Source of the DNA: Lonicera japonica
Taxonomy: Eukaryota > Streptophyta > Magnoliopsida > Dipsacales > Caprifoliaceae
Direction: 5' to 3'
Assembly (NCBI GenBank): GCA_021464415.1
Contig: CM038470.1
Coordinates: forward strand, 36,450,099-36,514,098
DNA length: 64,000 bases
Below the pieces are notes generated by a model, which saw only the letters and a program-made list of their open reading frames with translations, was not told where the DNA came from and did not search any database. Positions 19,240 through 43,922 of the stretch are shown one piece after another (positions within the stretch are counted from its first letter, which is position 1; each line of letters opens with the position of its first letter). A program made the translations under genes and the position numbers.

Positions 19240-19330
19240 ATGGGCGTATTTATAACAAAAAATTGGTCCCTGTACCTATTTGTCGCACGACAAACCTAGA
19301 TCCCGGGAGAATTGTCGCGCGACAATCCCC
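19240..19330 (-). promoter_or_regulatory. Element A antisense gene 2 promoter with palindromes
   Basis: On the minus strand a TATA box TATAAATA (19247-19254) precedes the gene 2 start at 19199. Upstream lie TGTCGCACGACA (19281-19292) and the perfect palindrome TGTCGCGCGACA (19313-19324). The gap from TATA to the nearest palindrome is 26 bp, against 27 bp at the element B copy. The conserved spacing supports a real promoter element. Confidence 0.7.
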
Positions 19331-19657
19331 TTTTTTCTGCCATTTTGTTCTCCTTTGAGACATTTAAAATCGTTCTTGCCAAAAGAACCACTCATGCATG
19401 CATTGTACTTATCATGTTCTTTTGCAAAAACCATAAAGAGCCTCCGTACCACATGGCATGATTCCTAAACCCTACTGGTTTTATATATATATGAATATTG
19501 ATATTATTTGTCACAAACACATAAGAGAAATATATATATATATATATCATTTAGAAAAAGGTATAAATCCAACAAAAATAGTTTTCAAAAAACTCAACAA
19601 CAAACTAACTATTAATGTTTACTGCATTTTTCCAAAGTACTAAAATATAATGCAGGA
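19331..19657. other. Spacer between antisense genes in element A
   Basis: AT-rich, with a TA microsatellite at about 19530-19550. It corresponds to 27120-27440 in element B. No gene is seen. Confidence 0.5.
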
Positions 19658-19920
19658 AAATAAACCTAATCTATCAGAGGGCGCTTCGACATGCTCTCAC
19701 TATCGCCCGACGCCTCCTTGGGTGGATGGATAGCCTGGGTAGGATCAACAGCTGGCCGCACTATCTCCAAAGAAAGAATCTCAAACGTCCAAGAAGAAGC
19801 TGAAGGCCGAACTGCTGAAGACCTTGAACACCTAGAAGGCCAAATGCTACTCCTCCAAGACTCCATTCGTGTGTGAGAAGAAGTCAGAGGGTCATCTGCC
19901 CATAGAGAGACCTCAATCGC
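19658..19920 (-). pseudogene. Element A antisense gene 1 (plant mobile domain gene), 3' end
   Basis: This is the last coding part of the gene whose upstream exon pieces lie at 38169-38813 and 41935-42440. It reads WADDPLTSSHTRMESWRSS... and ends SKRPLID then TAG at about 19669. It matches the end of the element B gene (RPDDPLTFFHARTESRRSS...SKRARID). Element B is inserted within the codons just upstream, so its split halves are 18.2 kb apart. Confidence 0.65.
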
Positions 19921-21264
19921 TGTGAGAATCCGCAAATGCGACCCCCGGGTCTCGTCCCCATTCGTTTGGGCGTCTGAAATGTCGGAATGGATTCTGTCGT
20001 TCCATTTGCTGGAGTATTTTGATAATTCATATCACATATCCCTATGTTCTATTTCTAGATGCTTTTACTGACAGTCTACTACTTTCTAAGTGAAAACCCT
20101 AATTTTAGGAAAACGGGGAAAGGGATAAAAACCTTTGTGTTCCGAGATCCAATGTTTTTATTATTTTGAAAGATGTAAATACAAGTGATGAAAGTTGTAT
20201 TTTGAGAGAGAGAGTTTCCCGTATTATTTTCTCAGATAATGACGATTTTCTCGTATTGTGATTACTTTTGTAAAAGTTCGGATCTTGTATCGAGACTAAT
20301 TTAATATGGAATTAGAACTCTTTAGGGGAGTTTCATCAGACACGTCGCAGTCTAAAAAGACAGGATATGTTGATGTTAATTCCTAGATAAGTCTTATCAG
20401 TCCGGGTTTTGAAAACAGGATTTTGTCCGGATGATAATATACTTATTCTTCTAATTTTGCAAATGATTTTACCAGGGTCTTTTGTTTTAAAAACAGCAGA
20501 CTACTTTGTAACTTGGCAATAAGTTTATTCAAATAAAACGTGGACTGAATAACAGAAGTAAAAACAAGTACACAGATGTATAATTTAAATACTAGAAGAG
20601 ATTTTCTTTACCTTCACGATGAGAATAACAATAAGAAAGAAAATATAATATGGCAGAGAAATCTCCGACGATAATGATCTTTTCCATCTTCAGATATTTT
20701 CGAGAATTCGATTCCAGAGACGGGACACGTCGAGTGTCGTGAATAGATCCGATAATTCTTTAGAAATAAGACGATAATAGAGAATGCTTGATGAAAGACT
20801 AGAAAATCAGATTTTAAGCTTAGAATTCTTCAATCCCAAGTTGCCCTCCTGAACCCTTGGGGGTGTTGGCCTATTTATACTGCTCGGGGAAGATTGTCGC
20901 ACGACATATCCCCAGAAAGGGCAAGTGTCGCGCGACATAGTGTACAATGTCGTGCAACAAACGGCTGAAGTGATGTTTCTGACAGACTGATTTGTCAGAG
21001 AGTGGATGGTCTGGTGTCAGGAGGGATTGTCACGCGACATAGTGGGATTGTCACGCGACATATCAGTGATTGTCGCGCGACATATCAGTGATTGTCGCGC
21101 GACAATGTGATATGTCGTGCGACAATCTCTCTTAAAAATAGGTTTGTTGGCCAACAAAATCTTTCGGGGTAGTTTCGGGTGCTCGGGTGGGTCCCGGACC
21201 CAAAAATAGTAGTTTCCGAAGGTCGTTTGGGTTCTTGCGGGGGTCACGGATCGGGGTGTCTACA
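19921..21264 (-). repeat. Element B 3' LTR
   Basis: 1344 bp. It matches the 5' LTR (36625-38168) throughout, apart from a 231-bp deletion with GATGC at its edges (20058-20062 here; 36762-36766 and 36993-36997 in the 5' LTR). The lost block holds the U5 stem-loop and GTGTTAAGCACC segment. The minus-strand TATA box TATAAATA is at 20872-20879. Confidence 0.9.
20872..21124 (-). promoter_or_regulatory. Element B 3' LTR promoter: TATA box and eight TGTCGCGCGACA-type palindromes
   Basis: Palindromes or one- to two-base variants lie at 20895-20906, 20926-20937, 20948-20959, 21028-21039, 21049-21060, 21071-21082, 21093-21104 and 21113-21124. The nearest is 15 bp upstream of TATAAATA (minus strand). 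Copies in the two distal clusters are spaced 20-22 bp, about two helical turns. They lie in U3, upstream of transcription start, so they act most plausibly as DNA sites. Confidence 0.8.
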
Positions 21265-21482
21265 GACCCTCTCGACTCAAGCTCCTTGCTTGCAAGGAAT
21301 TGAGGCGACTGGAAGAGACCATGATCCATGGCTCCCGCAAGACTCTAAGGAAGTGTGTGTTATGCGAAAAGTGTTCGTGATCGCCTCCGGAGAGGGCTTG
21401 TGTTTGGTTTTGCCTCCGGAGAGGGCTTTTGTTACCTCATTGCCTCTTTCGAGGGCTTTTATTTGCTCCACTCGCCTCAGAT

Positions 21483-21890
21483 GGGAGGACTACCATTGAT
21501 CCACTTTGCGCCTCAAGTGGGAGGACTACCATTGTTCCACTGTGCCTCTCTGGGAGGGCTTCGCCTCAGGTGGGAGGACTACCATTGCTACACTGTGCCT
21601 CTCTGGGAGGGCTTCGCCTCATGTGGGAGGACTACCATTGTTACACTGTGCCTCTCTGGGAGGGCTTCGCCTCAGGTGGGAGGACTACCATTGCTCCACT
21701 GTGCCTCTCTGGGAGGGCTTCGCCTCAGGTGGGAGGACTACCATTGTTACACTGTGCCTCTCTGGGAGGGCTTCGCCTCAGGTGGGAGGACTACCATTGC
21801 TCCGCTGTGCCTCTCTAGGAGGGCTTCGCCTCAGGTGGGAGGACTACCATTGCTCCACTGTGCTTCTCTGGGAGGGCTTTTGATCTGTAA
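21483..21890. repeat. Tandem array, 53-bp period, next to element B 3' LTR
   Basis: GGGAGGACTACCATTG starts at 21519, 21572, 21625, 21678, 21731, 21784 and 21837, exactly 53 bp apart, with a partial unit at 21483. Each unit is GGGAGGACTACCATTG(C/T)TCCACTGTGCCTCTCTGGGAGGGCTTCGCCTCAGGT-like. Degenerate GCCTC(C/T)GG.GAGGGCTT motifs extend the array on both sides (21380-21450 and 21905-21985). In sense direction it lies just before the 3' LTR. Open frames across it are repeat artefacts. Confidence 0.92.
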
Positions 21891-21989
21891 GAAGAAAGAA
21901 AATTGCCTCTGGGAGGGCTTTCGTGAGTAATTTTGCCTCTGGCGAGGGCTTGTGTTTGTGATTTGCCTCTGGTGAGGGCTTGTGTTGTA

Positions 21990-22780
21990 CTCTAGTGAAT
22001 TTAATCGTTATCTCTCTCAGACTGCTAGAGTGAGAGAGAGAGAGGGAGATTTTCGTGAGGGTGAAAAGAGCTTCTCGAGGTTTGATGTCCATTTTCCTGT
22101 ATCTTTCGGAACTTTTACTCTCATGTTTTCTCCTAGGGAAGATACTTCTCTCAGAAGGCAGTTTCCGAATTTCTCTTGCTCTCCGCAGAGTGATGGTCTG
22201 AGGTTTTTTCCAAATCATCTCTTCTGTATCGTGCTGAAAAGAAAATTTGTTTGAAAGTTCAATCTCTAATCTCTGTTCTCTTCTTATTTTTCTCTTTTGG
22301 TGGGCCCACATCGTATTCTGTTTTTCGATGCCCTTATTTCTCCCTCTTTTTGGGAAAGACTTTTCCTGGCCTTCTCTGTTTTTGACCAGGAGTCTTTTTA
22401 TCCTTTTCTTGCGATCAGGAGCCTTACTCACCCAAAGCGAAGTCCTGAGCCGATTATGGCCTAGCTGTCACTTTTGGTGTGGCTCTCCCTTTCACTCTGC
22501 ATTTCTGTTTCTCTTGCTCGCTTTGGAAATTCATGCGGGTTCTTTCTCTTTTCTGCTCTTTCAATTTTTTTCTATTCTCGTCTTATTTTGATATTCTGCT
22601 TTTTCTCCTTGATGGTCACGGTCCTTCCGTGAGATCAGAGATTACTTTAACTGTTTGTATTTTGTTCTCGCTTTTTCAGAGAGATGATTTTGGAAGTCCT
22701 CCTTGAATTTTCATCCTGGGTGTGCAGTTTTTAGCAATTTTTTCGAAAACTGCTTCTCAGAAGTACCCCTGCAGGAGATA
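21990..22780. other. Spacer between 53-bp array and antisense gene 1 promoter
   Basis: CT-rich on the plus strand, with GA-rich simple sequence near 22025-22050. No protein domain is seen in the open frames at 22247-22591 or 21844-22431 (minus), which overlap on both strands. Confidence 0.4.
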
Positions 22781-22816
22781 AAATGAGACAAAGGTCAAAA
22801 AAATCAGGGGAGGGGG

Positions 22817-22910
22817 GTGATTGTCGCGCGACACTTCGGTGTCTGGCTCTTTGTCACGCGACAATATGGCCATTTGTCGCGCGACAATCCTCTTCACTAT
22901 ATAAGTCCCT
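22817..22910 (+). promoter_or_regulatory. Element B antisense gene 1 promoter with palindromes
   Basis: TGTCGCGCGACA at 22822-22833, TGTCACGCGACA at 22852-22863 and TGTCGCGCGACA at 22875-22886 are followed 11 bp later by CTATATAAG (22897-22905). A CT-rich leader and an ATG at 23041 follow. This is a complete plant-type core promoter on the strand opposite gag-pol. Confidence 0.75.
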
Positions 22911-23040
22911 TGCTGAGCTCATTCCACCTCATTCTCTCCTTTATCTTTCTCTCTCTAGCTCTCCTTCTCTCTTCTCTCAAGCACGGGAGCCCTGCCACTT
23001 TTCTGACTTTCCGATTTTCTTATACTCCATTTACACTCAG

Positions 23041-26000
23041 ATGGATCCTGCACATCCCGATCGACTCAAGGGTGACCAGGAGGAGGTCACCTTTACCGAT
23101 GCTCAGGGCGTTCTCTGGTGTAGCCCTCATCACGATGACTGGGAGGACCTTGATCGGTACGGCGAGGATGGGGTGGACCGCGGTCGGGCAGTGGTCTACC
23201 GAGACTTTACTCGGGCTGCTCCGGTCCCGGACGTTCCGTGGCTCTTGATGGAGCCTGTCTCTCACGAGATCCGTCGACGATCTCTGGTATGTCTTCTTTT
23301 CATGTTTTTATCTGTTCTATTATTTCTGTCGTTTCCTGCATGTATTTTGAATAATGTTAGTATGCATGTTTGCCTAAAAATAACGTCCGATTTTTAGCGA
23401 ACACATACTTTTACCTGTGATACCTCTTAGGTTTTGGGAATTTACATAATTTACCCTTATTACCCTATATCTCTCATAATTACACCAAAGTACCCTCAGG
23501 TTTGGAAAATTACATACTTTACCCTTACAGCCCTATATCTCTCATAATTACACCAAAGTACCCTCAAGTTTGGAAAATTACCTAATTTACCCTTATAGCC
23601 CTATATCTCTCATAATTACACCAAAGTACCCTCAGGTTTGGAAAATTACATAATTTACCCCTATAACCCTATATCTCTCATAATTACACCAAAGTACCCT
23701 TAGGTTTAGAAAATTACATAATTTACCCCTATAACCCCATATCTCTCATAATTACACCAGAGTATCCTCAGGTTTGAAAAATTACATAATTTACCCCTAT
23801 AACCCAATATCTCTCATAATTACACCAAAGTACACTCAAGTTTTGGAAAATTACATAATTTACCCATATAACCCAATATCTCTCATAATTACACCAAAGT
23901 ACCCTCACGTTTGGAAAATTACATAATTTACCCTTATAACCCTATATCTCTCATAATTACACCAAAGTACCCTCAGGTTTGGAAAATTGCATAATTTACC
24001 CCTATAACCCAATATCTCTCATAATTACACCAAAGTACCCTCAGGTTTTGGAAAATTACATAATTTACCCCTATAACCCAATATCTCTCATAATTACACC
24101 AAAGTACCCTCAGGTTTGGAAAATTACATAATATACCCTTATAACCCTATATCTCTCATAATTACACCAAAGTACCCTCAGGTTTGGAAAATTGCATAAT
24201 TTACCCCTATAACCTAATATCTTTCATAATTACACCAAAGTACCCTCAAGTTTTAGAAAATTACATAATTTACCCCTATAACCCAATATCTCTCATAATT
24301 ACACCAAAGTACCCTCATGTTTGGAAAATTACATAGTTTACCCCTATAACCCTATATCTTTCATAATTACACCAAAGTACCCTCAAGTTTGGAAAATTGC
24401 ATATTTTACCCCTATAACCCAATATCTCTCATAATTACACCAAAGTACCCTCAGGTTTTGGAAAATATCATAATTTACCCCTATAACCCCATATCTCTCA
24501 TAATTACACCAAAGTACCCTCATAATCATGTACTTGTTCTTTTTGTCTATAGTGGGTTGGCCGTGGTTGGGGCTCCCCCAACACCATTTTCTTAGAGTGG
24601 CGACAGGCACCGGCTCCTGTTTAGGAGTTGCTCTCTGCGACTCCTTTTGGTTCTTTCTTCGATGCCCTCCCGGAGCGGGTGTCTAGAGCAGCTGTGTTGG
24701 TGTCAGCTCTAGCCTGTCACTGGTGGGACACCACTCATACCTTTCACTGGAGCTGGGGGGAGATGACGATGACCCCCTTCGACTTATTTGCTTTGACCGA
24801 GATTCCTTCAGGGGGTCCCTATACAGATCGACGTCCCCTTGCGTCTGACAGCAGAGGGCATTGTTGGTGCACTAGGATGGTTCCCGGAGCGACGGAGCTC
24901 CGGTGATACGATTCCTCGGGCTGTCTTGGTTACGCGGCTAGCCACAAAGAGAGCTCGATTAGTTGCTTCGGGGGTGCCGATGACCCATCAGGAGGCGCGC
25001 CAGTATGCCCGCGTCTTTCTTTTACTGACGCTCCATGATCTGTTTGAGGCCCGTGGGGGGGGACATGGCCCATCTCTGGTGGCTGCCCTATCTCCGGGAT
25101 TTCAGCCTCATGTTCAACTATGATTGGGGCAGTTTTATTCTTGCCGTCCTCTATGATGCTATGGACCAGGTTTCTCGCCACTTAGCCCTGAACCTTAAGG
25201 GCTTTTCTTTGCTGTGGGAGGTATATACTTTTGTTTCCTTATCTTTTTTCCAGTCCTTTACTTTTTATTTTGTTGATTGTTGCTGATATTCTTTATGTTT
25301 CTTCTTCAGAGTTGGTTTGTGGCGTATACTCGTTTGGGTCGCGCCCAGGTAGATCTCCTGGTTGAGAACGAGGATCAGTTTCCCTTCCTCCGCCAATTCA
25401 TTGCGGGGAACTACAGGGCTCCCTATGTATACCGGACTTGGGAGACCGGAGCTGCTACTGTCCATGACCTGCTAGAGGAGCAGGTAAATATCTTAGTATT
25501 CTTTCTTTTCAATAAATAAAATAGAATATAAATAACTGAAATAAAATTTTGTTCTATTTGTAAATTGAGTGGGTCCCCTGGGGTGATTTGGGTCTCCATT
25601 TCGGATATGACCGTGCTCTGACCGCCTCGAGGACCAGGCGTCTGATTAGGGATAAGTACGGCCTTCTTTTCTACTTGGGCGAGAGAGTTATTCGCCAGTA
25701 CACACCGGCCCAGTGGCCCCGAGTTCCATTATTTCCACCGGTTCTTATGAGGCGGACAGGTGAGATCGAACCGGTGACGGTGCAGGCCTTGGTTGATGGG
25801 CTTGGCTTTTAGACGTTCACTGAGGAGGGAGACTACGCTGCTTTCGCCGCCCGTTACTTGATGAGGGAGCCGAAGGGGACTCGGGGACGGGTCTTCTATG
25901 AGAGATATCGGGCATTGGGAGGCGATCCCCATTATATACGAGGACAGACCCACCTAGCTAGGATGGTTCCGGGTCACCTGCCACCTGTCCCTGATCAGAG

Positions 26001-27110
26001 GGACAACATTTTGGATTTCGAGGATGAGGACCCCGAGGGGAAGAGGGACATTCCTGCTGCTTCCTAGGGTGGTGATAGATTAGGGGGTGAGGGAGGTAAT
26101 ACGACGGCAGCTCCGGAGCAGCCGCCTCAGACGACACCCATGGAGGAGCAACGCGCTGAGGGCTTTGAGTTTCCTACCGGTCCTTCTTTGTCTCCGGAGG
26201 TCCTTTTCGATGCTGCCGAGGCTGCTGAGGGGAGAGAAGGATTTTCCGAGCGGTCCTGGGAGCAGATTATGAGCAGTTTGAGCGGACCCCTCCTGCTGCG
26301 GCGACTACTCCTTCTAGTGGGGTCCCGCCTTTGAGAGCGACGGCTATGGTGGATCCTCCAGGTGTCCGTACCTACACTACACTGACCCCTCTTTCCGTCG
26401 ACTGCTATGGGCCCTCCAGCCCGATCACCAGGTCTTGGCGACTCATCTTCTCGCCCTCTTTTGTTCCCTATTCGCGAGGAGGGAGGGTCCACTTTCGCTG
26501 ATGTTCCGGCGGGGTCGTCCATTCCTTGGGTAGATCTACCTCCACTTCCCAGAGATATCTCTTATGTCGGTGCCGGTTTATGTCGATACACTGTCCCGGA
26601 GTATCCTCTTCCTGAGGATGTTTTTGACTACTTGGGTGGTCGCCCTGGTGATGAGGTACTTACTTCAACTTCTCTTGATACTTTTATATCTTTATTTATT
26701 TATTTTTACTATGCTGATTCTCTTATCTTATGTCTTTTACAGCGGGTGAGTGTACGGGTGGCGGATCTGCGGGCTTGGCACGCCCAGTATCTTTATAGCT
26801 GAAACCTGCTCTAGTACGTCGGTCGAGACCCTCCAGCATACATGCGTGACTATCAGAGGGCTATTGATGTTTTTTTACGGCCAGATGACCCCCTAACTTT
26901 TTTTCATGCCCGGACAGAGTCTCGGAGGAGTAGTAGTCAGACCTCCAGGCATTCTCGGTCCTCGGTGATCTGTCCTAGGGCACCGGTCCAGTCTATGGGG
27001 CCCTCTCAGGCAGCAGTTCCTTCTTATCCAGATGTCCCAGCCGTCGATCCTACTCCGGAGAAGGGTTCGAGCAATAGTGGGAGCGTGTCGAAACGCGCCC
27101 GGATAGATTA
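23041..27110 (+). pseudogene. Element B antisense gene 1: spliced plant mobile domain (PMD) gene
   Basis: Likely exons by GT-AG signs and open frame: 23041-23286, 24554-25220, 25310-25483, 25570-26655 and 26743 to about 27105. PMD motifs: THTFHWSWGEMTMTPFDL (about 24734-24787), RVFLLLTLHDLF and WWLPYLRDFSLMFNYDWGS, then ILAVLYDAMD (about 25010-25170). This resembles the aminotransferase-like PMD family known from plant MAIN/MAIL-type proteins and from transposons. Its biochemical role is unsettled, with nuclear and silencing-related functions reported for host relatives. Damage: a frameshift near 24835, another in a G run near 25055, and stops at about 25810 and 26066. The last part is low-complexity, ending SKRARID. 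The start is chosen because ATG 23041 opens the frame leading to the first splice donor. Confidence 0.7.
23400..24535. repeat. 68-bp satellite inside intron 1 of antisense gene 1
   Basis: ATATCTCTCATAATTACACC starts at 23467, 23535, 23603 and onward to 24491 at 68-bp steps, about 16 units. Units differ by few substitutions (for example CCTCAGG versus CCTCAAG) and single-base length changes. The array fills nearly the whole 1.27-kb intron between the donor at 23287 and the acceptor at about 24553. Confidence 0.93.
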
Positions 27111-27439
27111 TCTTTTTTTGCATTTAGTTAGTTCAGACAGATATGTAGTTTTTATTTTTAGACACGTTTTTAGGCAAAATTTTAGTTTTGAAAACTGTTC
27201 TTTCATTAGATTTATGAAAATCTTTATTTGTGTCTAATGATATACTATTATTCTCTGTTTGTGGAAGATAATATATATATACATATATATGAGTCAGTGT
27301 TCTAGGAGCCATACCTTATAGCGTAGTGACACGTAGGATTCCTGTAAAAGAACAAAGTGAGAACAAGAATGCATCTAGAAGTAATTCTTTTGGCAAGAAT
27401 GACCCTTACGTGTAAGGAAAACAAAATAGGGTAACCCTA

Positions 27440-27530
27440 AATGGGATTGTCGCGCGACAATCCCTCCTGGGCATGGGTTTGTCGCACGACAAAAAGGCAC
27501 AGGACCCTCATTTTTTGCTATAAATACTCC
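27440..27530 (+). promoter_or_regulatory. Element B antisense gene 2 promoter with palindromes
   Basis: TGTCGCGCGACA (27448-27459) and TGTCGCACGACA (27480-27491) are followed after 27 bp by TATAAATA (27519-27526), and the ATG lies at 27566. Order and spacing match the element A copy at 19247-19324. The 200 bp before it (27240-27440) are AT-rich with a TA tract and no gene. Confidence 0.75.
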
Positions 27531-27565
27531 CATCTTCTTTCCTTCATCCCCACACCTTCAAAAAA

Positions 27566-28807
27566 ATGTTTTCTTATCGCACAAATTCTGATTTCTTTTA
27601 TGTTAAAGCCCGAGATGCTCTGATATCTTCTGAAAACGGCTTGAATTTTGGTGCATTTAGTCCTTTAGCGGGTTGGTGCCATCGTCCTGTAGATTTTTCC
27701 TTTCTGTTAGGCGCTTTGTATTTCTAGAGCCCTGCGGATCATCTCTTTCGTTTTGGGCTTGATGAGCTTTGTCCGACCTATGAGGAGTTTTTCTGGCTGT
27801 TATGTTCTGATGTTCGTCTCCCGATGGCAGTTTCCATAGAAGAAATTGGTCCCCGAGACATGCTGATTGCTCTATTAGCCATTCCCCAGGCGGCCTGTGA
27901 TGGTTTTATTACCGACAGACTCCTTGACCTCCATAAAATGGTGAGGTTTTTTCATCGTTACGAAGAGAGAGCCTCTTATAGTGTGGGGCGTACTGCGGCG
28001 GCCTTGATCTGTCTTGTTTCTGATATGTTACTGGTGACGGGTTCTTCCCGTGTTGATCCGACTATTCTGAGTTTGATCTACCATGCTAGAAATGGGGAGT
28101 CCATAGTGCCCATCGTTCTTGCCGAGACTCTGAATGGTCTTGACGATATTCAAAGGGGGGCTTCACCTTTCTTCAGGGGGAGTCCATGCTTGCTATACAT
28201 GTGGCTGTTGGAGCGTTTTTGATCGGTGGGTTTCAACGGGGTTCGGCTCGACAATCCGATATATTTTTTCCATCGTCCTCTCTTCGGTACTTTGACCATG
28301 TCTTCCTCTGATTGGACGGTGTGGTTTTCGGAGAACTTTTGGGCTATCCGGTGGAAGTTGAGGGCGATGGTGCTTAGTACAGGGGGTCAGAACTACGTTC
28401 GGCTCCGCGGGCTCTGGTTTACCTCCTTTTTTCTCCCAGGACGTCTTCTTCGGAAGTTTAACGTTCCTCAATAGATTCCCCTTGGTCTAAACAACTTCTC
28501 CTCTGAGTCCAAATTTGTGACCCCGCATGTTTCTTTATCGGTAGAGAGGATGTGGCGTGCTCGACTAACTCGTCAGTTCAACTATGCTCGTTTTGGTATT
28601 ACCTGGCCCCTCCAGGCTGACATTATCCGCTCTTGCTGGCAACCTCTGGAAGGGGAGCTGATTGATGACCCTTTTTAAATGGAGTGGTTCCGATTCATGG
28701 ATACTGGGGCCACTGATGATAGCATTGTCTTTGCGTATCAGATTCTGGACGAGGCTCGCATTGATTTGGCTATTGAGGACTCAGTGTGGCCAACCCCTAG
28801 GGATTAG
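27566..28807 (+). pseudogene. Element B antisense gene 2 (DUF7745-like protein)
   Basis: One frame of 413 codons runs from ATG 27566 to TAG 28805-28807 with no frameshift, interrupted by four stops: codon 54 (27725), near codon 218, near codon 302 (about 28471) and 28676. At the first two stops the element A copy reads W and R, so TGG to TAG and CGA to TGA changes explain them. Motifs: SSENGLNFGAFSPLAGW, FGLDELCPTYEEFFWLL, GPRDMLIALLAIPQAACDGF, YSVGRTAAALICLVSDML, IVPIVLAETLNGLDD and FRGSPCLLYMWLLE. The pattern fits the DUF7745-type plant transposon-associated family, function unknown. No introns are evident, unlike gene 1. Confidence 0.6.
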
Positions 28808-29025
28808 TTTCTTCTTTGTATGCTGTATCTCCTTTGTAACTTTGGTGTTCTGAACCACCTTAATAATATACGAGGGACTGTTTGTGGGAAATAAATTTCT
28901 TTACAATGTTTAAACCGGGCCTGAAGTCACTTCTCAGGTTGTCTACGTTCCCCTTTTTGACTTCCAAAACACGAATTTTGAGTTGGGGCTCAGGTTTACG
29001 TAGTTCTTATCTATACTTGTTATGC
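28808..29025. other. Convergent spacer between antisense gene 2 and integrase in element B
   Basis: About 218 bp separate the ends of the two convergent coding regions. The sequence contains GGCTCAGGTTTACGTAGTT, which matches the inverted equivalent in element A near 17770. AATAATA-like polyadenylation candidates exist on the plus strand near 28862. Confidence 0.4.
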
Positions 29026-30110
29026 CTATTGGTAATATTTCTTTAGTCGGTCAATGTTGACTGGTGAATGCAGTGACTGTCCGTCTATATCAGTGAGTAT
29101 AGCGGCACCCCCCGTATTGATTTCTTTGACGATGTACGGCCATGTCCACTTCTGTCCAAACTTTCCTCTTGGGTCTCTGGCTGGCTCTCGAATTTCTTTC
29201 AATACGATGTCGTTCTCATTGACACCCCGAGTCTTCACTTTCTGGTTAAATGCTCGAGTGATTCTCTTCTGATACCCTTGGTGGTGGTATGCGGCTTTCA
29301 ATCTCTTCTCATCCAGTAGGGCTAGCTCGTTATAACGTGCCTGGACCCACTCCAGTTCATTGACTTGTTTTTCTAGCATTACTCTGAGAGAGGGGACCTC
29401 TAACTCAACAGGGAGGACTGTTTCCATCCCGTATGTAAGAGAAAACGGGGTTGCCCCGGTGGAGACCCTCTCGGTGGTGCGGTATCCCCACAATGCATAT
29501 GGTAATTTCTCTGGCCAGTCCCGGCAGGTGTCGGTCATTTTGCTTAGGATATTTTTCAGATTCTTGTTGGCAGCCTTAACTGCCCCATTGGTTTGCGGTC
29601 TATATGGCGACGATCTATGCCGGGTAATACCGTACTCCTCCATGACAGAATTAGCCTCTCATTCGAAGTGAGTGCCGTTGTCCGAGATGATCTCGTGTGG
29701 GACCCCATACCGACAGATGATATTTCATCTGATGAATCGGGCAACTTTTCTGGCGTGAAGGGTTTGGAAAGACTCGGCTTCTACCTATTTGGTGAAGTAG
29801 TCGATGGCCACTAGTATGAATTCGTGACCGTTGCTGGCTTTGGGTGAAATCTTTCCAATGATGTCAATGCCCCAAGTCGCGAAAGGCCAGGGAGCAGTCA
29901 TGTTGTACAGCTCTTTTGGTGGAAGTTTCTGAGATTTAGCATAGATTTGGCACTTGTGGCAACGGCGTACGTGATTAACGCAGTCGTTTTGCAGGGTAGA
30001 CCATTAATAACCTTGTATGATGATTTTGCGGGTAAGTGTATGGCCGCTCATGTGAGGTCCACAATCGCCACCATGTATCTGATCCATCACTTTGACAGAC
30101 TCTTCTTCAG
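29026..30110 (-). pseudogene. Element B integrase
   Basis: The zinc-binding part (NHVRRCHKCQIYAKSQKLP, about 29925-29985), then GIDIIGK, SDNGTHFE and the conserved block MEEYGITRHRSSPYRPQTNG. The family's catalytic glutamate position reads lysine here (NGAVKAANK at 29563-29589), whereas element A reads NGAIETANK. A single GAG to AAG change explains it. The C-terminal domain (KFGQKWTWPYIVKEI) ends DRLKKYYQ at 29026. Stops at about 29660, 29730 and 29790 break the core. There is no chromodomain. This protein would insert element cDNA into the genome but is inactive as read. Confidence 0.85.
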
Positions 30111-30117
30111 TGATACA

Positions 30118-30831: not shown

Positions 30832-30882
30832 TATCGGAGTGTGGGCTAGGTAATCAGCTATGATCTTGCCTTTGACTGCCTT

Positions 30883-32403: not shown

Positions 32404-32901
32404 AACAGAGTTTTATTCATTGATAATAGTGCTTACAGGTATAAGTTTAAAAAGCGAATCTAGGAGTGACTCCTCCCTAGCCTTACCCTCATTCTTATCT
32501 CCCACCCTTACAATTTCACTCTTTCCCCCTTTCTTTGGTAATTGGATCAGCGTATATCAAGTGTACAGGGTTGTCTCTTGGCTTGTCATCCCATAGAGCC
32601 ATGATGTCGAAGAGATCTCCGCTCATTTCTTCCTCTTCATCCTCCTTGTCTGCATTTTCTTCTTTCGGCCTGATCGTCAATTTGGTAGAGAAACTGTGTA
32701 TAACGTTTTCCTTGATATAAAGGTCCTCTTCATAGAAGATTTCCCATCCTGGAAGGTTCTCTCCGTCGTTGTTTCTCCAAGGCTCTTGAAAGCCGCAAAA
32801 GGGGAAATCCTCTCCTTCCTTGACAAAAAACCCATTCAGAGAGCTAAAACTCGGATACTGATGCCCCGACCCCTTTTCTCCTGGTTGTCTTCTCCGGTGT
32901 G
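32404..32901 (-). pseudogene. Element B linker between protease and RT
   Basis: An acidic linker (KEENADKEDEEEEMSGDLFD, DNPVHLIYADP) matches the equivalent in element A at about 14140-14280. Stops and frameshifts are present, and no catalytic domain is recognised. Confidence 0.55.
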
Positions 32902-33933
32902 CTAGTACCCCAACCCTTCTCTTTCATGCCTCGTTACTGGTTCTAAGGCCTGAAGTAATCCTAGTTGTCCCATTCCCAGACTGGCTCCAGGTAAGTATTT
33001 CATCTTTCTCAGCATATTTGTGACTTTGGTGCTGAGACCGGGGATATTATCAGGGGGCAGATACTCGATTCTCTGGGTGGTGAGAGCTTGTACTTGAGGC
33101 TCGTAAGAAAATCCTCCCAACTGTATGCTCTGGCTCCTGATGCCCAAAACAGGTAATTCCAGATCTGCCAAGGTTCTCTCCGGATCTCCTTGGATGGTGA
33201 TTATATTCCCTTCGAACGGTATCTTGATCTTCTGGTGTAAGGAGGAGGGGAGTGCTCCTATGTCGTGTAGCCATGCTCTTCCCAACAAGAGGTTAAAACT
33301 TGAAGGAATGTCTATGATTTGAAAATCGACCGGAAAGTTTCCTAGAGCGACCATGAGATCTAGTTTTAGGGAACCCAGAACGGCCCTTCTGGTGTTGTCA
33401 TAGGCTCTAACGGTCACAACTGACGGGGAAAGTTCTGAGTCTAAGATACCCAGACATCTGGCGGTCTTCAAGGGGCAGACGTTTATGGTTGACCCGTTGT
33501 CGATGAGGACTTGCAGCAGGATTTTCCCTCGGGTCCGGACAGTGATATGGAGGGCTAGGCTGTGTTTTCTTCCCAATGGAGATAAGTCTTTATCTGAAAA
33601 TGACAGACTTCTTTGGACTGTAAGTGACTCGATCATGTTTGGCAGTTGCTCTGGTGTGGAATCTGGTGATATGACGGCCTCGTCTAGAAGTTTGATGAAG
33701 GCGATCCTGTAAAGTTTGTAGGCAACCAAGAGGCCCCAAATGGTGATGTGTGCCTGAGTTTTCTTCAATTGTTTCAGTACTCGATCTTCTCCTATTTCCT
33801 TAGGAGGTGGTGATTTCTCGGCATCCACTGGTGGTGGCTGGTATACCCTCCCTGAACGGGTGATTTGTTGTATCCAAAGTGATGATGGGTCTAATCCTTC
33901 TGAGGTTTTGATGACTCTGGCTCTGCCGACCAA
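32902..33933 (-). pseudogene. Element B aspartic protease with G-patch-like tail
   Basis: The 343-codon open frame is the longest in the element. The protease motif LIDNGSTINVCPL (about 33478-33516) keeps the aspartate lost in element A, and FNLLLGRAWLHD follows. Near the end, MLRKMKYLPGASLGMG (about 32965-33012) has the spacing of glycines seen in G-patch domains, which are reported in Ogre-type elements after the protease. It is preceded by SLWIQQITRSGRVYQPPP, also present in element A. The frame ends at a stop after EREGLGY. Confidence 0.8.
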
Positions 33934-34100
33934 CTAAAAATCCCGGGGGAGGTTTCTGTCATACAGATTGTCTCCTTAGGGGGGCCTCATGGTTTCCACG
34001 GCTGTTTCTTCTTCTCCTCGGTCCATCATATCCTAGATTTTTCGGGATTGGTTTTGATTGTAAGTGGCTTTGAGATCCCCTGATTTGCCTTTCCTAAACC

Positions 34101-35907
34101 TTACCCGGGTAGGAAGTTCATTTTAGCCATCCATTGGTCGATTATCGGATTAAGGCCTGGCGCCACTTGAGCTTTTGCTGGCAGTACAACGGGTGCCTTG
34201 CAGGCTGGGGCATCTCGAATGAGTCCTACGGGGTCAAAGCCTTCTTCATCAGTGGTCAAGGCGTTAATTCCCGCAGGTGGATCGTGGTTAGGAAGGGGAT
34301 TGTTGGTAACATTGGGCTTGCCGAGTGCGGGAATGGTTCCGGCTTCAATGAGGTCCTGGATGCGATGGCGAAGAGCCAAGCAACTTTTCGTGTCATGGCC
34401 CGCTGCTTGATAGTATGCACAATTCTCATTCATTCTCCAGGTGCTAGGAATAGGGTTTGGTGGGGGGCGCGGGTTGAGTGGAGTGATTAGTCTGGCCTTT
34501 CGGAGTAGTTCCAGGCTTTTGACCAGGGTAGTGGGGAGGGTGCAGAAGTTTCTCCTCCTCTTAGCCTCGGTGCTCGAAGGGTCTCCTTGTGCAGGCTAAC
34601 TCATCTGAGGGGCTTGTTGTGACTGTTGAAATGGATTTTGTTGGAAGGGGTATGAGCTTAGTTGGTTTACAGCTGGAGTGGCCGTCTTTTTCCCTGTGTA
34701 TAAGGCTTTCTTAGTATCGGTTTCTGCTTTCTTGGCCAATTCTTCCTCTACTTGCGACCCCATACTCAACAGGGCTCTGAAGTGTGGGAATACATGCTTT
34801 CCCATGCAACTCAGTACAGCTGGGGTGAAATTCTTCTGTATGATCTCCAACTGCTCATCTTCATCAGGTCTCTTGGACATTTGGGAGGCCATCTCTCTCC
34901 AGCGTGTGACGAAATCGCTGAAGCTTTCCTTCTCGCCTTGCTTGGCCATTTCCAGGTGTTTACGGGTAATTTCCAAATCCTCATTGGACCCGTATTTGGT
35001 CATGAATTCCTTGACGATATCTCCCCAAGTTTTTGTGTGGTGTCTCTCTAAATCGAAAAAACCATCTCAGGGCAGCCCCCGTGAGAGTCATATGAAAGGC
35101 CTGAGCTAGCTCCGGCTCTCCACAGCCGGACACTTACATGGATCTGATGTAGGATTGAAGATGGGTTTTGGGGGGTATGGTCCCTGTAAATTTGGTGATG
35201 GAAGGGAGTTTGAATCCCTGGGGTAATCTTGCTTCTGGGTAGAGGGAAAAGGCATCCATATCCGTAATCTCGTCTGCCCCTTTTATCAGAGAAATTCCTC
35301 TTTGCAGAACCTTCATCTGCTCTTTCAGTTTCTTCATTTCTTCACTCTCTCTTGACACCTCATCGGGCTGTTCCCGAGCTATAACCGATTCTGCATACAC
35401 TGCCCGAAGTTAATTGATGTCTGGGTATTCATTAGGAGGCGCAACTGGGGCTGGTAGTGGAATAGCTCTTGCGGGGGCTTGTGGCCATGGTTGGTATTGG
35501 GGATCGAGGCCTTGCTGAGGTTGGGGCCAGATGATGGGTGGCTCTTGTTGTTGGTAAGTGGGGCCTGAATTCGGGGCCCATTGGTTCTGATTGTTGGGAT
35601 CGGTATGAACGGGACCGGCCACGACAGGGCCCGTTTGGGGTAGATTGGTTCCTTGAACTGGGGGAAGTACTTGTGAAGACTGCCCTTGATCTCAATTCGG
35701 TGGTAGCCGTTCAAATCCCGGTGGTGCAGCCCGTCCAGCTGACAACTCTTCTACTCGAACTCTGGTATTCTGTTGCTCGTTTGTGAGACTTGCTAGATTC
35801 ATGCTGGCGGTCATCAGTAAACGATGCATTTCGGCTAGAGTTGGCTGCGGTGCAGACGCCTCGGCTAGGCTTTGATCTGTCTCTTGATTCTCGCGTCCAT
35901 CGGCCAT
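34101..35907 (-). pseudogene. Element B gag
   Basis: Chosen start: ATG at 35907 (MADGRENQETDQSLAEA), the first after the leader that opens the conserved frame. Order: a helical N-terminal part (EMHRLLMTASMNLASL), a Pro/Gln-rich linker with QPWPQAPARAIPLPAPV, the capsid-like gag domain (FVTRWREMASQMSKRPDED, IQKNFTPAVLSCMGKHVF) and a zinc knuckle-like CAYYQAAGHDTKSC (about 34390-34431). A stop near 35693 and others near 35413, 35131 and 34600, plus a short frameshift, interrupt it. Gag would assemble particles and bind RNA. It shares WGDIVKEF with the chimeric junction at 11.8 kb. Confidence 0.83.
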
Positions 35908-36605
35908 TTCAAGTGTGCTTGGTCTTACTAGTCTTCCGGTATGATCTCGACCGGCCCAACCTTCCAGTCTGTCATCGTATTTACGGTTGTAGACGAAACC
36001 ACGTGGCAAAGATGAAGGAAGACTATAATGCGACTCGATTTTTGCCAAAAGAACCACTAAAAATTGTCGAGGAAAGACTCGGATTTTAAAAAGGTATTGT
36101 AAAGTATGCCGTAAGGTGGTACATCCCCTACGGCTGTTTGACAAGTGCTTTAGCTGACTCAATCTTATATGCAACGCAGGTGTACAAATGGTTAAGGCTT
36201 CAGGCTCCCTCCTATTTGGCAAGACCTTGCGATATACCCTAGGGGTGGGTACGTGCAAGAGCCTTTTGATATACTTCCCGGGTACATGAGTGTTCTTGTC
36301 ACTCGATATACCTCGGGGGCGTACTTGGCCAAGGAGAGTGGAAGTAAATGCTTTCGGTTTATGTTGGCCCAAGCAAGCCAACTCCCTACTCACTTATAAT
36401 ACTTCTGAGGGTTTATGTTGGCCTAAGAAAGTGCGTGTAAAGTTCGAAAGGTTGATTTCACAAATATCATTATCTTTATTACATATTTTTTGAAAAACTC
36501 CCATTTTTTTTTAAAAAAAGGTTTCTTCTCAATCAATTAACATAAGTAGGGAAAGCAGAAAAAGAGATAAACAAAAGTCCACATATAAGAGTCTAGTTCT
36601 CTAAG
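35908..36605 (-). other. Element B 5' leader between PBS and gag
   Basis: About 700 bp of untranslated leader. An open frame extends upstream of the gag ATG to 36393 with no known domain. GGGTTTATGTTGGCC-like and GGTATATCG-like short motifs recur. Confidence 0.5.
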
Positions 36606-36623
36606 TCCCCAGCAGAGTCGCCA
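36606..36623 (-). other. Primer binding site of element B
   Basis: The minus strand reads TGGCGACTCTGCTGGGGA, one base after the 5' LTR end (36625). It is complementary to a tRNA 3' end, and Ogre-type elements are described as using a tRNA-Arg primer with this kind of sequence. It confirms orientation and the LTR boundary. Confidence 0.85.
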
Positions 36624-36624
36624 C

Positions 36625-38168
36625 TATGAAAATCCGCAAATGCGACCCTCGGATCTCGTCCTCGTTCGTTTGGGCGTCTGAAACGTCGAAACAGATTTTG
36701 TCGTTCCATTTGCTGGAGTATTTTGATAATTCATATCATATATCCCTATGTTCTATTTATAGATGCAAAGGGGTTCATTTAGAGTCTCCAGTACATTTAA
36801 CGAGAAAACGGACAAAAAGGACCGTGTAAGAGGAAAGGCTATAGACAAGCCTTTCTTTACACTTTTGTCTATGAAACCAGGATTCTATAGGGTTCGGAAA
36901 CTATATTACGGTTTGGGAAGGTGTTAAGCACCCATTCCGCCCTTTCGGTCTCTAGTGGTCTTTTATATGTTTATTCTATGTTGAAAAACTTGGATGCTTT
37001 TACTAACAGTCTACTACTTTCTAAGTGAAAATCCTAATTTTGGAAAAACGAGGAAAGGGATAAAAACCTTTGTGTTCTGAGATCCAATGTTTTTATTATT
37101 TTGAAAGATGTAAATACAAGTGATGAAAGTTGTTGTATTTTGAGAGAGAGAGTTTCCTGTATTATTTCCTCGGATAATGACGATTTTTTCGTATTGTGAT
37201 TACTTTTGTAAAAGTTCGAATCTTGTATCGAGACTAATTTAATATGTAATTAGAACTCTTGAGGGGAGCTTCATCAGACACGTCGTAGTCTAAAAAGACA
37301 CGATATGTTGATGTTAATTCCTAGATAAGTCTTATCAGTCCGGGTTTTGAAACAGGATTTTGTCCAGATGATAATATACTTATTCTTCTAATTTTGCAAA
37401 TGATTTTACCAGGGTCTTTTGTTTTGAAAACAGCAGACTACTTTGTAACTTGGCAATAAGTTTATTCAAATAAAACGTGGACTGAATAACAGAAGTAAAA
37501 CAGGTACACAGATATATAATTTAAATACTAGAAGAGATTTTCTTTACCTTCCCGACGAGAATAATAATAAGAAAGAAAATATAATACGGCAGAGAGATCT
37601 TCGGCAATAAAGATCTTTTCCTTCTTCAGATGTTTCCGAGAATTCGATTTCAGAGACGGGACACATCGAGTGTCGTGAATAGATCCGATAATTCTTTAAA
37701 AATAAGACGATAATAGAGAATGCTTGATGAAAGACTAGAAAATCATATTTTAAGCTTAGAATTCTTCAATCCCAAGTTGCCCTCCTGAACCCTTGGGGGT
37801 GTTGGCCTATTTATACTGCTCGGGGAAGATTGTCGTGCGACATAGTGTACAATGTCATGCGACAAACGGCTGAAGTGATGTTTCTGACAGACTGATTTGT
37901 TAGAGAGTGGATGGTCTGGTGTCAGGAGGGATTGTCGCGCGACATAGTGGGATTGTCGCGCGACAAAGTGGGATTGTCGCGCGACATATCAGTGATTGTC
38001 GCGCGACAATGTGATATGTCGTGCGACAATCTCTCTTAAAAATAGGTTTGTTGGCCAACAAAATCTTTCGGGGTAGTTTCGGGTGCTCGGGTGGGTCCCG
38101 AACCAAAAAATAGTAGTTTTCGAAGGTCGTTAGGGTTCTTGCAGGGGTCATAGATCGGGGTGTCTACA
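36625..38168 (-). repeat. Element B 5' LTR
   Basis: 1544 bp. TATA box TATAAATA on the minus strand at 37808-37815. It keeps the 231-bp U5 segment missing from the 3' LTR, including the stem-loop region at 36919-36942. Compared with the 3' LTR it lacks about 31 bp between two palindromes near 37842, so the palindromes seem to have recombined. Confidence 0.9.
37808..38028 (-). promoter_or_regulatory. Element B 5' LTR promoter: TATA box and seven palindromes
   Basis: TGTCGCGCGACA or close variants at 37831-37842, 37853-37864, 37933-37944, 37954-37965, 37975-37986, 37997-38008 and 38017-38028. The nearest is 15 bp from TATAAATA, the same gap as in the 3' LTR and LTR C. The distal five are spaced 20-22 bp. 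Confidence 0.8.
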
Positions 38169-41891: not shown

Positions 41892-41934
41892 CGGACAATA
41901 TCGTACTGAGGTGGGATCGGGTCGTTACACAGTA

Positions 41935-42440
41935 CCTCGTCTCTCCGCGGCCTTAGCCTCGTCAAAGATAACCCCCAAAGATATCGAAGGGCCCGTAGGA
42001 AACTGCTATCGTCCTTAGCCTCCACAAACGTAGACCGAGGTGGATGCTCAGGAACTGCTGTCATCCCACCTCCCTCACCACCCTCGAGTCTGTCACCACC
42101 ATCACCCTCTGCAGCAACAGGAACACTCCTCTCTCACTTAGGATCCTCATCATCAGAATTAGGGATGTTGTCCTTCTAGTTGGGGACATGTGGCAAATGT
42201 CCCGGGACCATCTTAGAAAGATGAGACTGCCCTCGTATATAGTTGGGATCACCGCTCAACGCCTAGTATCGTTCATAGAAGACCCAGTCTCGAGTGCCCT
42301 TCCACTTTCTTATCAAGTATCAGGCCACAAAGAGGGCATAGTCACCCTCCTCGACAAAGGTCTAAAAATCAAGCCCATCCACTAATTCAATCTTGCCTAT
42401 CTGCTTCATCAAAACCGGTGGAAACGACGAAACCCAAGGC
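41935..42440 (-). pseudogene. Element A antisense gene 1, part of exon 4
   Basis: Homologous to about 25735-26230 of element B: the minus strand reads through CCACCGGTT..ATGA, TTTTAGAC.TT and GTCTTCTATGA.CGATA. At the TTT-TAG position both A and B carry the same stop, which suggests the stop predates both copies or that the frame shifts there. The sequence ends near 42440 at LTR C, so exons 1-3 are absent. Confidence 0.6.
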
Positions 42441-43922
42441 CACCTACCCCCGGGTCTCGTTTCCTGGGTTTTGGGCGTCTGAAATGTCAAAAAGGATTCT
42501 GCCATTCCCTTTGCTTCTATAGGATTGGTGTTTCCTATTATCTATTTCTAAATGCAAAAGGGTTCGTTTCAGAGTCGCCAGTACGTTTTACGAGAAAACA
42601 AACAAAAAGGGGTTGTGTAAGAGGAAATGCTACAGATAAGCCTTTATTTACACATTTGTCTACGGAATCAGGATTCTATAAGGTTCGGGAACTATGTTAC
42701 GGTTTGGTTTCGGTCTCTAGTGGTCTTATTTGTTTATTCTATGCTAAAAAACTTGAATGCTTTTACTAATAGTCTACTATTTCCTGAATAAGAAATCCTA
42801 ATTTTGGGAAACGGGAAAAGGGATAAAACCTTTGTATTCTGCGATCCGATCATTTTGCTTTCGAAAATGTAGTATAAATGAAAAAATTAATGTTTATGTA
42901 TTTTTAAAAGAGGTCTTCTGGCATTGTTTTCTCAGATAACGATGCCAGTTTTCTCGTGTTGATTACTTTAGAAAAGTTTGGATCTTATCGGAACTAATTC
43001 AATATGGAATTTGAACTTGTTGAGGGAAGCTTTATCGGGTATATCACAGTCTATGGGGAAGACAAGTCCTGGCCGACATTAATTCCTAAGTAAGTTTTAT
43101 TGATCTGGGTTTTGAAAACCTAGTTTTGTCTGAAAGATAATGTACTTACTTTATCTGGTTTTAAAAATGATTTTGTCAGGGTTTTTGGTTTAGAAAACGG
43201 TAGACTATTTGTAACTTGACAATAAGTTTATTCAAATAAAATGCGGACGAAAAAATAAAAATAAAACAAGTACACATATATATAACTTTAAATACTAGAA
43301 GACTTTCTTTACCTTCCCGATGAGGAATATAATAATAAGAGAGAAAATATAATACGGCAAAGGAACCTTCGGCGATAATAAGCTTTTCTCCCTTGAATAT
43401 TTCTGAGAGTTCGATCCCAAAAGTGAGACACGTCGAGAATAGTTTCGACAATTCTTCAGAAATTAGACGATCATAGAATATAGTTGATGAAAGATCATAA
43501 AATCAAATAGAAAGCTTAGAATTCTTAGATCCTAAGTCGCTTCCTTAAACCCTTGGGGGTGTTGGCCTATTTATAGTGCTGGGGAAGGATTGTCGCGCGA
43601 CATTTTTCTAGAAAAGGCAAGTGTCACGCGACACTAGTCCAAATGTCACACGACAAACGGCTGAAGTGACCATTTTGACAAACTGATTTGTCAAAAAGTT
43701 GTTGGTCTGTGTTTGGGGAACTTGCCGCGCGATATAAGGGAGATTTTCATGCGACACACTGGTTTGTCGCGCGATAATCCCCCTTATAAACAGGTTTGTT
43801 TGGCAAACAAACCCTTTCGGGGCAGTTTTGGGTGCTCGAGTGGGGCCCAAACTCCAAAAAGAACTGTGCTTTCTTGATAGTCGTTAAGGTTCTTGCGGGG
43901 GTCACTAATTGGGATGTCTACA
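42441..43922 (-). mobile_element. Element B-type LTR 'C', lacking its last about 20 bp
   Basis: It matches the element B LTRs along its length (CCCCCGGGTCTCG, GGGCGTCTGAAATGTC, ATGCAAAAGGGTTC, GAGAGAAAATATAATACGGC) and ends on the plus strand ...GATGTCTACA (43922), so its orientation is minus. The terminal TGTGAGAATCCGC of its left end is absent. TATA box at 43568-43575. It sits head-to-tail wrong for element A's own 3' LTR. Confidence 0.8.
43568..43776 (-). promoter_or_regulatory. LTR C promoter: TATA box and six palindromes
   Basis: Copies at 43591-43602 (perfect), 43622-43633, 43644-43655, 43723-43734, 43745-43756 and 43765-43776; the last four carry one to three changes. The gap to TATAAATA is 15 bp, as in both element B LTRs. 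Confidence 0.75.

What the first reader, a model, noticed from the sequence alone, without database searches (positions are those of the whole stretch)
19240..43776. One 12-bp palindrome, TGTCGCGCGACA, sits upstream of sense and antisense promoters of the same retroelement family
About 28 copies occur. Clusters lie in the LTR promoters (20895-21124, 37831-38028, 43591-43776), before antisense gene 1 (22822-22886) and before antisense gene 2 in both elements (19281-19324, 27448-27491). In every case a TATA box follows: 15 bp away in all three LTRs, 26-27 bp in both gene 2 copies, 11 bp in gene 1. Within arrays, spacing is often 20-22 bp. Three unrelated promoters sharing one site on both strands suggests a common DNA-binding regulator, perhaps encoded by one of the antisense genes, or a methylation-sensitive host factor. 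The sites are upstream of TATA, so an RNA role is less likely.
Basis: partly seen in the sequence, partly recalled or inferred. Interest (0 to 1): 0.88.

Follow-up and report, generated by a model that had tools for sequence, protein, structure and literature searches.

The report
Shared switch site in plant retrotransposon
A jumping gene of plant type carries the same 12-letter DNA palindrome just in front of the predicted promoter of its main genes and of its two backward-reading genes, likely so that a single protein, possibly one it encodes itself, can control all three together.

Summary
TGTCGCGCGACA occurs 27 times with at most 2 mismatches, against 0.53 expected. All 27 lie in six clusters upstream of TATA boxes, at the distances claimed. 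The clusters sit in two nested Ty3/gypsy elements of the dual-RNase-H Tat clade (Retand-like layout) and in a third LTR. The sense LTR promoter and both antisense-gene promoters carry it. I found nothing else in common: masked alignments score within shuffles, and a word search of five promoters returns only this site, extended to TGTCGCGCGACAATCC. Between elements A and B (dS 1.1-1.9) the gene 2 promoter keeps both sites (22 of 24 bases) and their spacing. Both antisense genes are under purifying selection (dN/dS 0.09-0.20); gene 1 encodes a plant mobile domain (PMD), gene 2 an unnamed family. I read the palindrome as the binding site of one dimeric factor co-regulating sense and antisense promoters. 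The binder is not identified. An element-encoded protein, working like VANC on VANDAL transposons, is my first choice; a host transcription factor is nearly as likely. The Arabidopsis PMD-linked DOWN motif differs. No other family members, expression or methylation data could be reached.

The parts
19921..38168 (-). Element B: Ty3/gypsy element with both LTRs, sense strand minus, inserted in antisense gene 1 of element A; imperfect TSD ATCGC (19916-19920) / ATCGT (38169-38173)
   Evidence: self-BLAST, LTR alignment, flanks read, checked
11793..19920 (+). Element A, 5' truncated part (gag-pol plus antisense gene 2); continues at 38169-42379 with the gene 1 remnant
   Evidence: 75.7-77.5% to B, inverted; Pfam hits RT, RNase H, integrase
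36625..38168 (-). 5' LTR of B; PBS-like GTGGCGACTCTGCTGGGG directly inside at 36607-36624
19921..21264 (-). 3' LTR of B (about 230 bp missing relative to the 5' LTR)
42440..43922 (-). LTR C, about 76% identical to the B 5' LTR; inner border approximate, no PBS seen
37831..38028 (.). 7 palindromes in U3 of the B 5' LTR; TATAAATA at 37815-37808 (minus), 15 bp away
20895..21124 (.). 8 palindromes in U3 of the B 3' LTR; TATAAATA at 20879-20872 (minus), 15 bp away
43591..43776 (.). 6 palindromes (one with 3 mismatches, 43745) in U3 of LTR C; TATAAATA at 43575-43568 (minus), 15 bp away
22822..22886 (.). 3 palindromes before antisense gene 1 of B; TATATAAG at 22898-22905 (plus), 11 bp away
27448..27491 (.). 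2 palindromes before antisense gene 2 of B, 32 bp apart; TATAAATA at 27519-27526 (plus), 27 bp away
19281..19324 (.). 2 palindromes before antisense gene 2 of A, 32 bp apart; TATAAATA at 19254-19247 (minus), 26 bp away
23041..27100 (+). Antisense gene 1 of B: predicted multi-exon PMD protein gene with frame breaks in this copy; predicted intron 1 holds a 68-bp tandem repeat (23433-24522)
   Evidence: PMD hits 31.5 and 17.5 bits, colinear, each under the 34.9 cut-off; 6 of 6 relatives carry PF10536; dN/dS 0.10 and 0.20
27567..28720 (+). Antisense gene 2 of B: accessory protein of an unnamed family, broken by stops in this copy; end approximate
   Evidence: dN/dS 0.09-0.13 in three parts, frame control; 17 relatives, no precomputed Pfam domain

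Best explanation
The palindrome TGTCGCGCGACA sits upstream of the predicted TATA boxes of the LTR and of both antisense accessory genes, and is likely the binding site through which one symmetric (dimeric) DNA-binding protein co-regulates the three promoters of this Tat-clade retrotransposon. Shown here: the site (extended form TGTCGCGCGACAATCC), its restriction within this window to six promoter clusters, its retention between diverged elements, and the coding constraint on both antisense genes. Inferred: that it is bound as DNA, mostly as an activator. Inferred with less support: that the binder is one of the element's own antisense-gene proteins (the PMD protein of gene 1, or gene 2), so that antisense expression feeds back on the sense promoter and marks the element's own copies. 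Through its CpGs such a circuit could also hold the promoters open against methylation, as VANC does for VANDAL transposons.
For: 27 sites against 0.53 expected, none outside the elements in this window. All six clusters lie upstream of TATA; 1.3% of random points in 11793-43922 are followed by TATAWAWR within 30 bp. Every word of 9 or more bases shared by the LTR, gene 1 and gene 2 promoters belongs to this site and its extension; of 2000 random window triples 23 share a 9-mer, 3 a 10-mer and 0 a 12-mer. Outside the motif the promoters are no more alike than shuffled (scores 20-21; 100 shuffles: mean 17, maxima 24-28), so a copied promoter is not detectable. A and B have dS 1.1-1.9, yet the gene 2 promoter keeps 22 of 24 motif bases and the 32-bp spacing, against 92 of 144 upstream. 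Motif CpGs persist (66 of 84) where the rest of the promoter is CpG-poor: masked o/e 0.29 gene 1, 0.31 and 0.43 gene 2, 0.38 C U3, though 0.72-0.78 in B U3, like the host flanks. Spacings cluster near whole DNA turns (P 0.013 with the array counted once). Both antisense genes are under purifying selection like gag-pol; in three tested parts only the gene's own frame and the mirror frame on the other strand show low dN/dS. Palindromic symmetry and length suit a dedicated dimer. Published VANC targets are likewise short motifs in tandem repeats of noncoding TE DNA with copy-number turnover (PMC5735166, passages); here the B 5' LTR lacks a 31-bp unit through an exchange between two sites, and C has 3 array copies against 5.
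Against: No binding, expression or methylation data. No DNA-binding domain shown in gene 1 or gene 2 pieces; the AlphaFold model of a gene 2 relative is unreliable. PMD proteins in Arabidopsis are linked to a different promoter motif, CATGCAGTTT, whose direct binder is unknown (PMC7156037, PMC9899485, passages). In C the array sites are degenerate (4 non-CpG changes), and LTR motif conservation over the U3 background is modest (59 of 72 against 194 of 269). Only two elements and three LTRs were available; the gene 1 promoter is known from one copy. The B 3' LTR has exact 12-mers but no exact 16-mer. Host transcription factors drive several known LTRs (recalled).
Confidence: 0.45

Rival explanations
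1. The palindrome is the site of a host transcription factor, possibly methylation-sensitive, that the element exploits for both sense and antisense promoters; no element protein is involved.
For: U3 enhancer repeats bound by host factors are a usual case in plant LTR retrotransposons (recalled). Site symmetric, upstream of TATA, near-helical spacing. Three CpGs and decay by CpG transitions fit a CpG-sensitive factor.
Against: About 20 bits over 12 positions (summed, inflated by relatedness of sites) is long for a plant factor (recalled). I recall no plant factor with this site; no motif library was searched. No copy with at most 2 mismatches in the flanking DNA outside the elements of this window, which is a small sample of the host genome.
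Confidence: 0.38
2. The palindromes act in RNA: in the genomic transcript the 3' LTR array and the antisense promoters form hairpins used for termination, packaging or small-RNA production.
For: The U3 array folds far better than shuffles (z -9.9, 0 of 200 shuffles as good); the sense transcript would contain the 3' U3 and both antisense promoters.
Against: Any array of palindromes folds well. Clusters are tied to TATA boxes on both strands. Single-sided G-to-A changes in the sites have no visible partner change (my reading of the list; no covariation count was run).
Confidence: 0.07
3. Neutral spread: a short GC-rich palindrome multiplied by slippage and gene conversion and has no function.
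For: The LTR array is a tandem repeat and its copy number varies, with an exchange inside two sites. In A and B 13 of 13 mismatches are CpG transitions, which CpG hypermutability alone could give.
Against: Same site in three otherwise unrelated promoters, matching TATA distances in homologous promoters, retention in the gene 2 promoter at dS above 1, CpGs kept in mostly CpG-poor surroundings.
Confidence: 0.1

Closest known systems
VANC21/VANC6 anti-silencing proteins and their target motifs in VANDAL (MULE) transposons
   Same: Short motif in dense, partly tandem arrays in noncoding regions of the TE; array copy number turns over; TE with accessory genes of its own (PMC5735166, PMC10398659, passages)
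   Different: DNA transposon; motifs YAGTATTAY and AGTTGTCC/AC, VANC21 motifs arrayed in one orientation, not palindromic; here an LTR element with a CpG palindrome near TATA boxes; no binding or demethylation shown here; homology to VANC not tested
Retand / Grande / RIRE2 retrotransposons with antisense accessory ORFs
   Same: Antisense ORFs between pol and 3' LTR, internal tandem repeats, second RNase H between RH and integrase; Grande gene23 has its own promoter and a nuclear product (PMC7264820, PMC11963269, PMC6317226)
   Different: PMD and an unnamed protein instead of TRP28; internal region 15.4 kb against 7.4-12.9 kb in the survey; the parts of these papers that I read describe no motif shared by LTR and antisense promoters
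Arabidopsis MAIN/MAIL1 PMD proteins and the DOWN promoter motif
   Same: Same protein domain as gene 1, linked to a promoter motif and to TE silencing; PMD-A clades are reported as exclusively Gypsy-encoded (PMC5418596, PMC7156037, PMC9899485, passages)
   Different: DOWN motif is CATGCAGTTT in the MORC1 promoter, unlike this palindrome; MAIN and MAIL1 are host genes of clade PMD-C
Host-factor enhancer repeats in plant LTRs such as Tto1, Tnt1 and ONSEN (recalled)
   Same: Repeated short sites in U3 upstream of TATA
   Different: Not known, as far as I recall, to be shared with antisense accessory promoters of the same element

Membership tests
Tat clade of Ty3/gypsy (Ogre/Retand position) | Second RNase H (aRH) between RH and integrase | tested here: met
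   B, minus strand, in order: RVT_1, RT_RNaseH_2, RVT_3, then integrase piece rve_3 (weak, 17.4 bits under a 26.5 cut-off); criterion from PMC6317226 (passages). That RVT_3 is the aRH is my reading
Retand lineage | Antisense ORFs between pol and 3' LTR | tested here: met
   Gene 1 and gene 2, antisense, dN/dS 0.09-0.20
Retand lineage | TRP28 (PF04195) domain in an antisense ORF | tested here: inconclusive
   No PF04195 hit in the gene 1 and gene 2 pieces or the three gene 2 relatives scanned; pieces are short and broken
Retand lineage | RT phylogeny | not tested
   No lineage reference set of RT was used
Gypsy PMD (PMD-A) | PMD domain (PF10536) encoded by a Gypsy element | tested here: met
   Two colinear PMD pieces, 31.5 and 17.5 bits, each under the 34.9 cut-off; 6 of 6 relatives found carry PF10536. 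Clade A1/A2 placement not tested
VANC-type anti-silencing system | TE-specific short motif in dense arrays in noncoding DNA | tested here: met
   Within this window only. Specificity in the whole genome could not be tested
VANC-type anti-silencing system | TE-encoded protein binds the motif and removes DNA methylation | not testable with these tools
   Needs EMSA/DAP-seq and bisulfite data
VANC-type anti-silencing system | Accessory protein homologous to VANC | not tested
   No VANC sequence was compared
MAIN/MAIL1 DOWN-motif regulation | Promoter motif CATGCAGTTT | tested here: not met
   Compared by eye with the palindrome; no similarity. The promoters were not searched for CATGCAGTTT

The most novel reading that the evidence does not exclude
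A Tat-clade retrotransposon encodes, on its antisense strand, a sequence-specific regulator (PMD protein or gene 2) that recognises a private 16-bp address, TGTCGCGCGACAATCC, planted in its LTR and in its own antisense promoters: a retrotransposon counterpart of VANC self-recognition and anti-silencing, and a function for Gypsy PMD proteins.
Probability: 0.3. Interest if true: 0.86.

Novelty: new variant of a known kind. Interest (0 to 1): 0.62.

Why it matters
Antisense accessory genes are found in all the recently active Retand elements of one survey, and their function is described as unknown (PMC11963269, PMC7264820). A single conserved site joining the sense promoter to both antisense promoters gives a concrete, testable target sequence for such proteins, and for Gypsy-encoded PMD proteins, whose host cousins act in transposon silencing. 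If an element protein binds it, retrotransposons would have their own self-addressed regulators like VANDAL transposons.

Tried and rejected
Rejected: (1) palindrome carried along by copying an LTR promoter into the antisense genes: masked promoters show no other similarity. (2) Match to the PMD-linked DOWN motif: CATGCAGTTT is different. (3) Known plant sites of E2F, ARF inverted repeats, CAMTA or DREB type: considered from memory only; spacing or core differ; no motif library was available. (4) Gene 2 as diverged PMD: profile comparison gave no support (probability 0.1% and 0.06%). (5) My first guess of DUF7745 for gene 2 found no support in Pfam.

Led nowhere: scans of viral contigs for spaced pairs (0 hits) and for the 14-mer (65 stretches, 63 with one place and 2 with two distant places; expected number not computed, loci not read); relatives of gene 2 in viral and prokaryote contigs (0 confirmed of 8 and of 3 pattern matches); U3 of the B 5' LTR against plasmids (no match); PDB sequence searches (0 hits); AlphaFold of a gene 2 relative (pLDDT 55.6), not taken to a fold search; literature for the motif: one unrelated chicken paper for the 12-mer (search listing only) and 813 papers for shorter words, 25 listed, none on plant retrotransposons by title; palindromes in plant LTRs (5 papers, listing only).

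Weak points told: the motif excess in the LTR alignment over background is small; with CpG hypermutability the absence of non-CpG changes in A and B (0 of 13) does not by itself show constraint; the helical-phase null is my own choice.
Full report
What is there. The window holds two nested Ty3/gypsy elements and a third LTR. Self-BLAST pairs 11793-19333 (element A, sense plus) with 35028-27439 (element B, sense minus) at 75.7-77.5% identity. B is bounded by LTRs 19921-21264 and 36625-38168 (1239 of 1304 aligned bases identical), has a PBS-like sequence directly inside the 5' LTR and flanks ATCGC/ATCGT. By my reading of the flanks it interrupts the last part of A's antisense gene 1. C (about 42440-43922) is a further LTR, about 76% like the B 5' LTR, in B's orientation. 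B encodes RT, RNase H, a second RNase H and integrase in that order, the order that Neumann et al. give for Ogre and Retand (PMC6317226, passages). Two antisense genes lie between pol and the 3' LTR.

The sites. TGTCGCGCGACA with at most 2 mismatches occurs 27 times, against 0.53 expected; a 28th with 3 mismatches lies inside the C array. They form six clusters: three LTR U3 regions (8, 7 and 6 sites), gene 1 of B (3), gene 2 of A and of B (2 each); 12 of 28 are exact, at least one per cluster. A TATAWAWR box follows at 15, 15, 15, 11, 26 and 27 bp; 1.3% of random points in the elements, and 2.6% in the whole window, are followed by such a box within 30 bp. Words of 9 or more bases shared by the B 5' LTR, gene 1 and B gene 2 promoters all belong to the site or its immediate extension, and so do all words of 7 or more shared by these three, LTR C and the A gene 2 promoter as far as listed; of 2000 random window triples 23 share a 9-mer, 3 a 10-mer, none a 12-mer. 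The 16-mer TGTCGCGCGACAATCC, on one strand or the other, is exact in five of the six clusters; the B 3' LTR lacks it.

Not copied promoters. With the sites masked, local alignment scores between LTR, gene 1 and gene 2 promoters (20-21) are within the range of 100 shuffles (mean 17, maxima 24-28), while LTR B against LTR C scores 123. So the site is what these promoters have in common; a shared origin is not visible.

Retention. Codon comparison of A and B over eight chosen stretches gives dS 1.1-1.9, and dN/dS 0.09, 0.11 and 0.13 for gene 2, 0.10 and 0.20 for gene 1, 0.10 RT, 0.075 integrase, 0.04 gag. A frame control on two gene 2 stretches and one gene 1 stretch gave 0.10 in the gene's own frame, 0.19-0.24 in the mirror frame on the other strand and 0.9-2.0 in the four other frames. 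At that distance the gene 2 promoter keeps both palindromes 32 bp apart, 22 of 24 bases, the two differences lying at the central CpG of one site; upstream sequence keeps 92 of 144, the stretch to TATA 39 of 54, TATA to ATG 38 of 47. The binomial chance of 22 of 24 is 0.002 at the upstream identity, 0.012 at 70% and 7.5e-8 at the identity expected for dS 1.3. In the LTR alignment (B 3' LTR against C) outer motif bases keep 32 of 36, the CpG core 27 of 36, the rest of U3 194 of 269: in the expected direction but modest.

CpG decay. Of 84 motif CpGs 66 are kept; the 18 losses are all transitions; of 168 outer positions 4 changed, all in the C array. In A and B all 13 mismatches are CpG transitions, as expected if the sites are methylated at least part of the time; this pattern alone does not prove constraint. 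But the surrounding promoter DNA, masked, has CpG o/e 0.29 (gene 1), 0.31 and 0.43 (gene 2), 0.38 (C U3) and 0.72-0.78 (B U3), against 0.75-0.77 in the host flanks (stretches of 225-283 bases), so in most promoters CpGs are kept preferentially inside the sites. The LTR R-U5 parts are also CpG-rich (0.99-1.07), without any site, which I cannot explain.

Turnover and spacing. In both B LTRs the array is a 21-22 bp tandem repeat. The B 5' LTR lacks a 31-bp unit present in the B 3' LTR and in C, the break falling inside two sites and leaving a hybrid site; C has 3 array copies against 5. Spacings 20-23 and 30-32 bp fall near two and three helical turns; the 79-80 bp link does not (mean cosine 0.57, P 0.013 with the array counted once; P 0.0009 with every array interval). 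The null, uniform spacing of 18-40 bp, is my choice.

The candidate regulators. Gene 1 is a PMD gene: colinear hits of 31.5 and 17.5 bits, each below the 34.9 cut-off because the copy is in pieces, and 6 of 6 relatives found carry PF10536. Ikeda et al. report that PMD-A clades are exclusively Gypsy-encoded and speculate on anti-silencing by captured PMDs in MULEs (PMC5418596, passages). In Arabidopsis, 25 of 26 genes commonly down in main, mail1 and pp7l backgrounds carry a DOWN motif (PMC7156037, passages), given as CATGCAGTTT for MORC1 (PMC9899485, passages): a PMD-promoter link, but another sequence. Gene 2 belongs to a family of 17 database fragments with no precomputed Pfam domain; the predicted fold of one of them is unreliable.

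Interpretation. The simplest reading is a common upstream DNA site for one dimeric factor. A dedicated, element-encoded factor fits the length and symmetry of the site, its restriction to the elements in this window, and the constraint on the antisense genes; VANC gives the precedent (PMC5735166, PMC10398659, passages). A host factor remains nearly as likely, since nothing here shows binding. RNA hairpins form readily (z -9.9), but any such array would fold, and the TATA linkage on both strands argues for DNA.

Novelty. In the parts I read of the two papers on antisense ORFs (PMC11963269 parts 1-3 of 5, PMC7264820 parts 1-2 of 3) no motif shared by LTR and antisense promoters is described. The 12-mer search of 5.39 million papers found one unrelated paper (listing). 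Subscription papers, among them the Grande gene23 and the Steinbauerova et al. papers, were not seen.

Limits. One window, two elements, three LTRs; species unknown (a plant by its elements); the own-genome search did not complete.

Noticed in passing
19921-20871, 36625-37807 and 42440-43567: LTR R-U5 segments, which hold no palindrome, have CpG o/e 0.99-1.07, while the internal regions of the same elements are at 0.2-0.8; possibly LTRs kept unmethylated in the germ line.
   Followed up: partly
23433-24522: Predicted intron 1 of antisense gene 1 consists largely of a 68-bp unit repeated 16 times, poor in CpG (o/e 0.2).
   Followed up: no
21456-21932: 53-bp tandem repeat, 7 copies at 94%, near the 3' LTR inside B; tandem arrays next to the 3' LTR are reported for Retand elements (PMC11963269).
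   Followed up: no
32905-33933 minus: Weak G-patch hit (18.9 bits, cut-off 22) at the end of this ORF of B; G-patch is reported as an extra domain in plant Gypsy elements (PMC9289625, passages).
   Followed up: no
5216-7608: Several tandem arrays with units of about 50, 97, 41 and 59 bp left of element A.
   Followed up: no
52211-53755: Three direct copies of a roughly 300-bp segment, 568 and 626 bp apart.
   Followed up: no
27567-28720; P0001-P0017: Gene 2 belongs to a protein family for which I found no Pfam or NCBIfam model, yet it is under strong purifying selection between A and B.
   Followed up: partly
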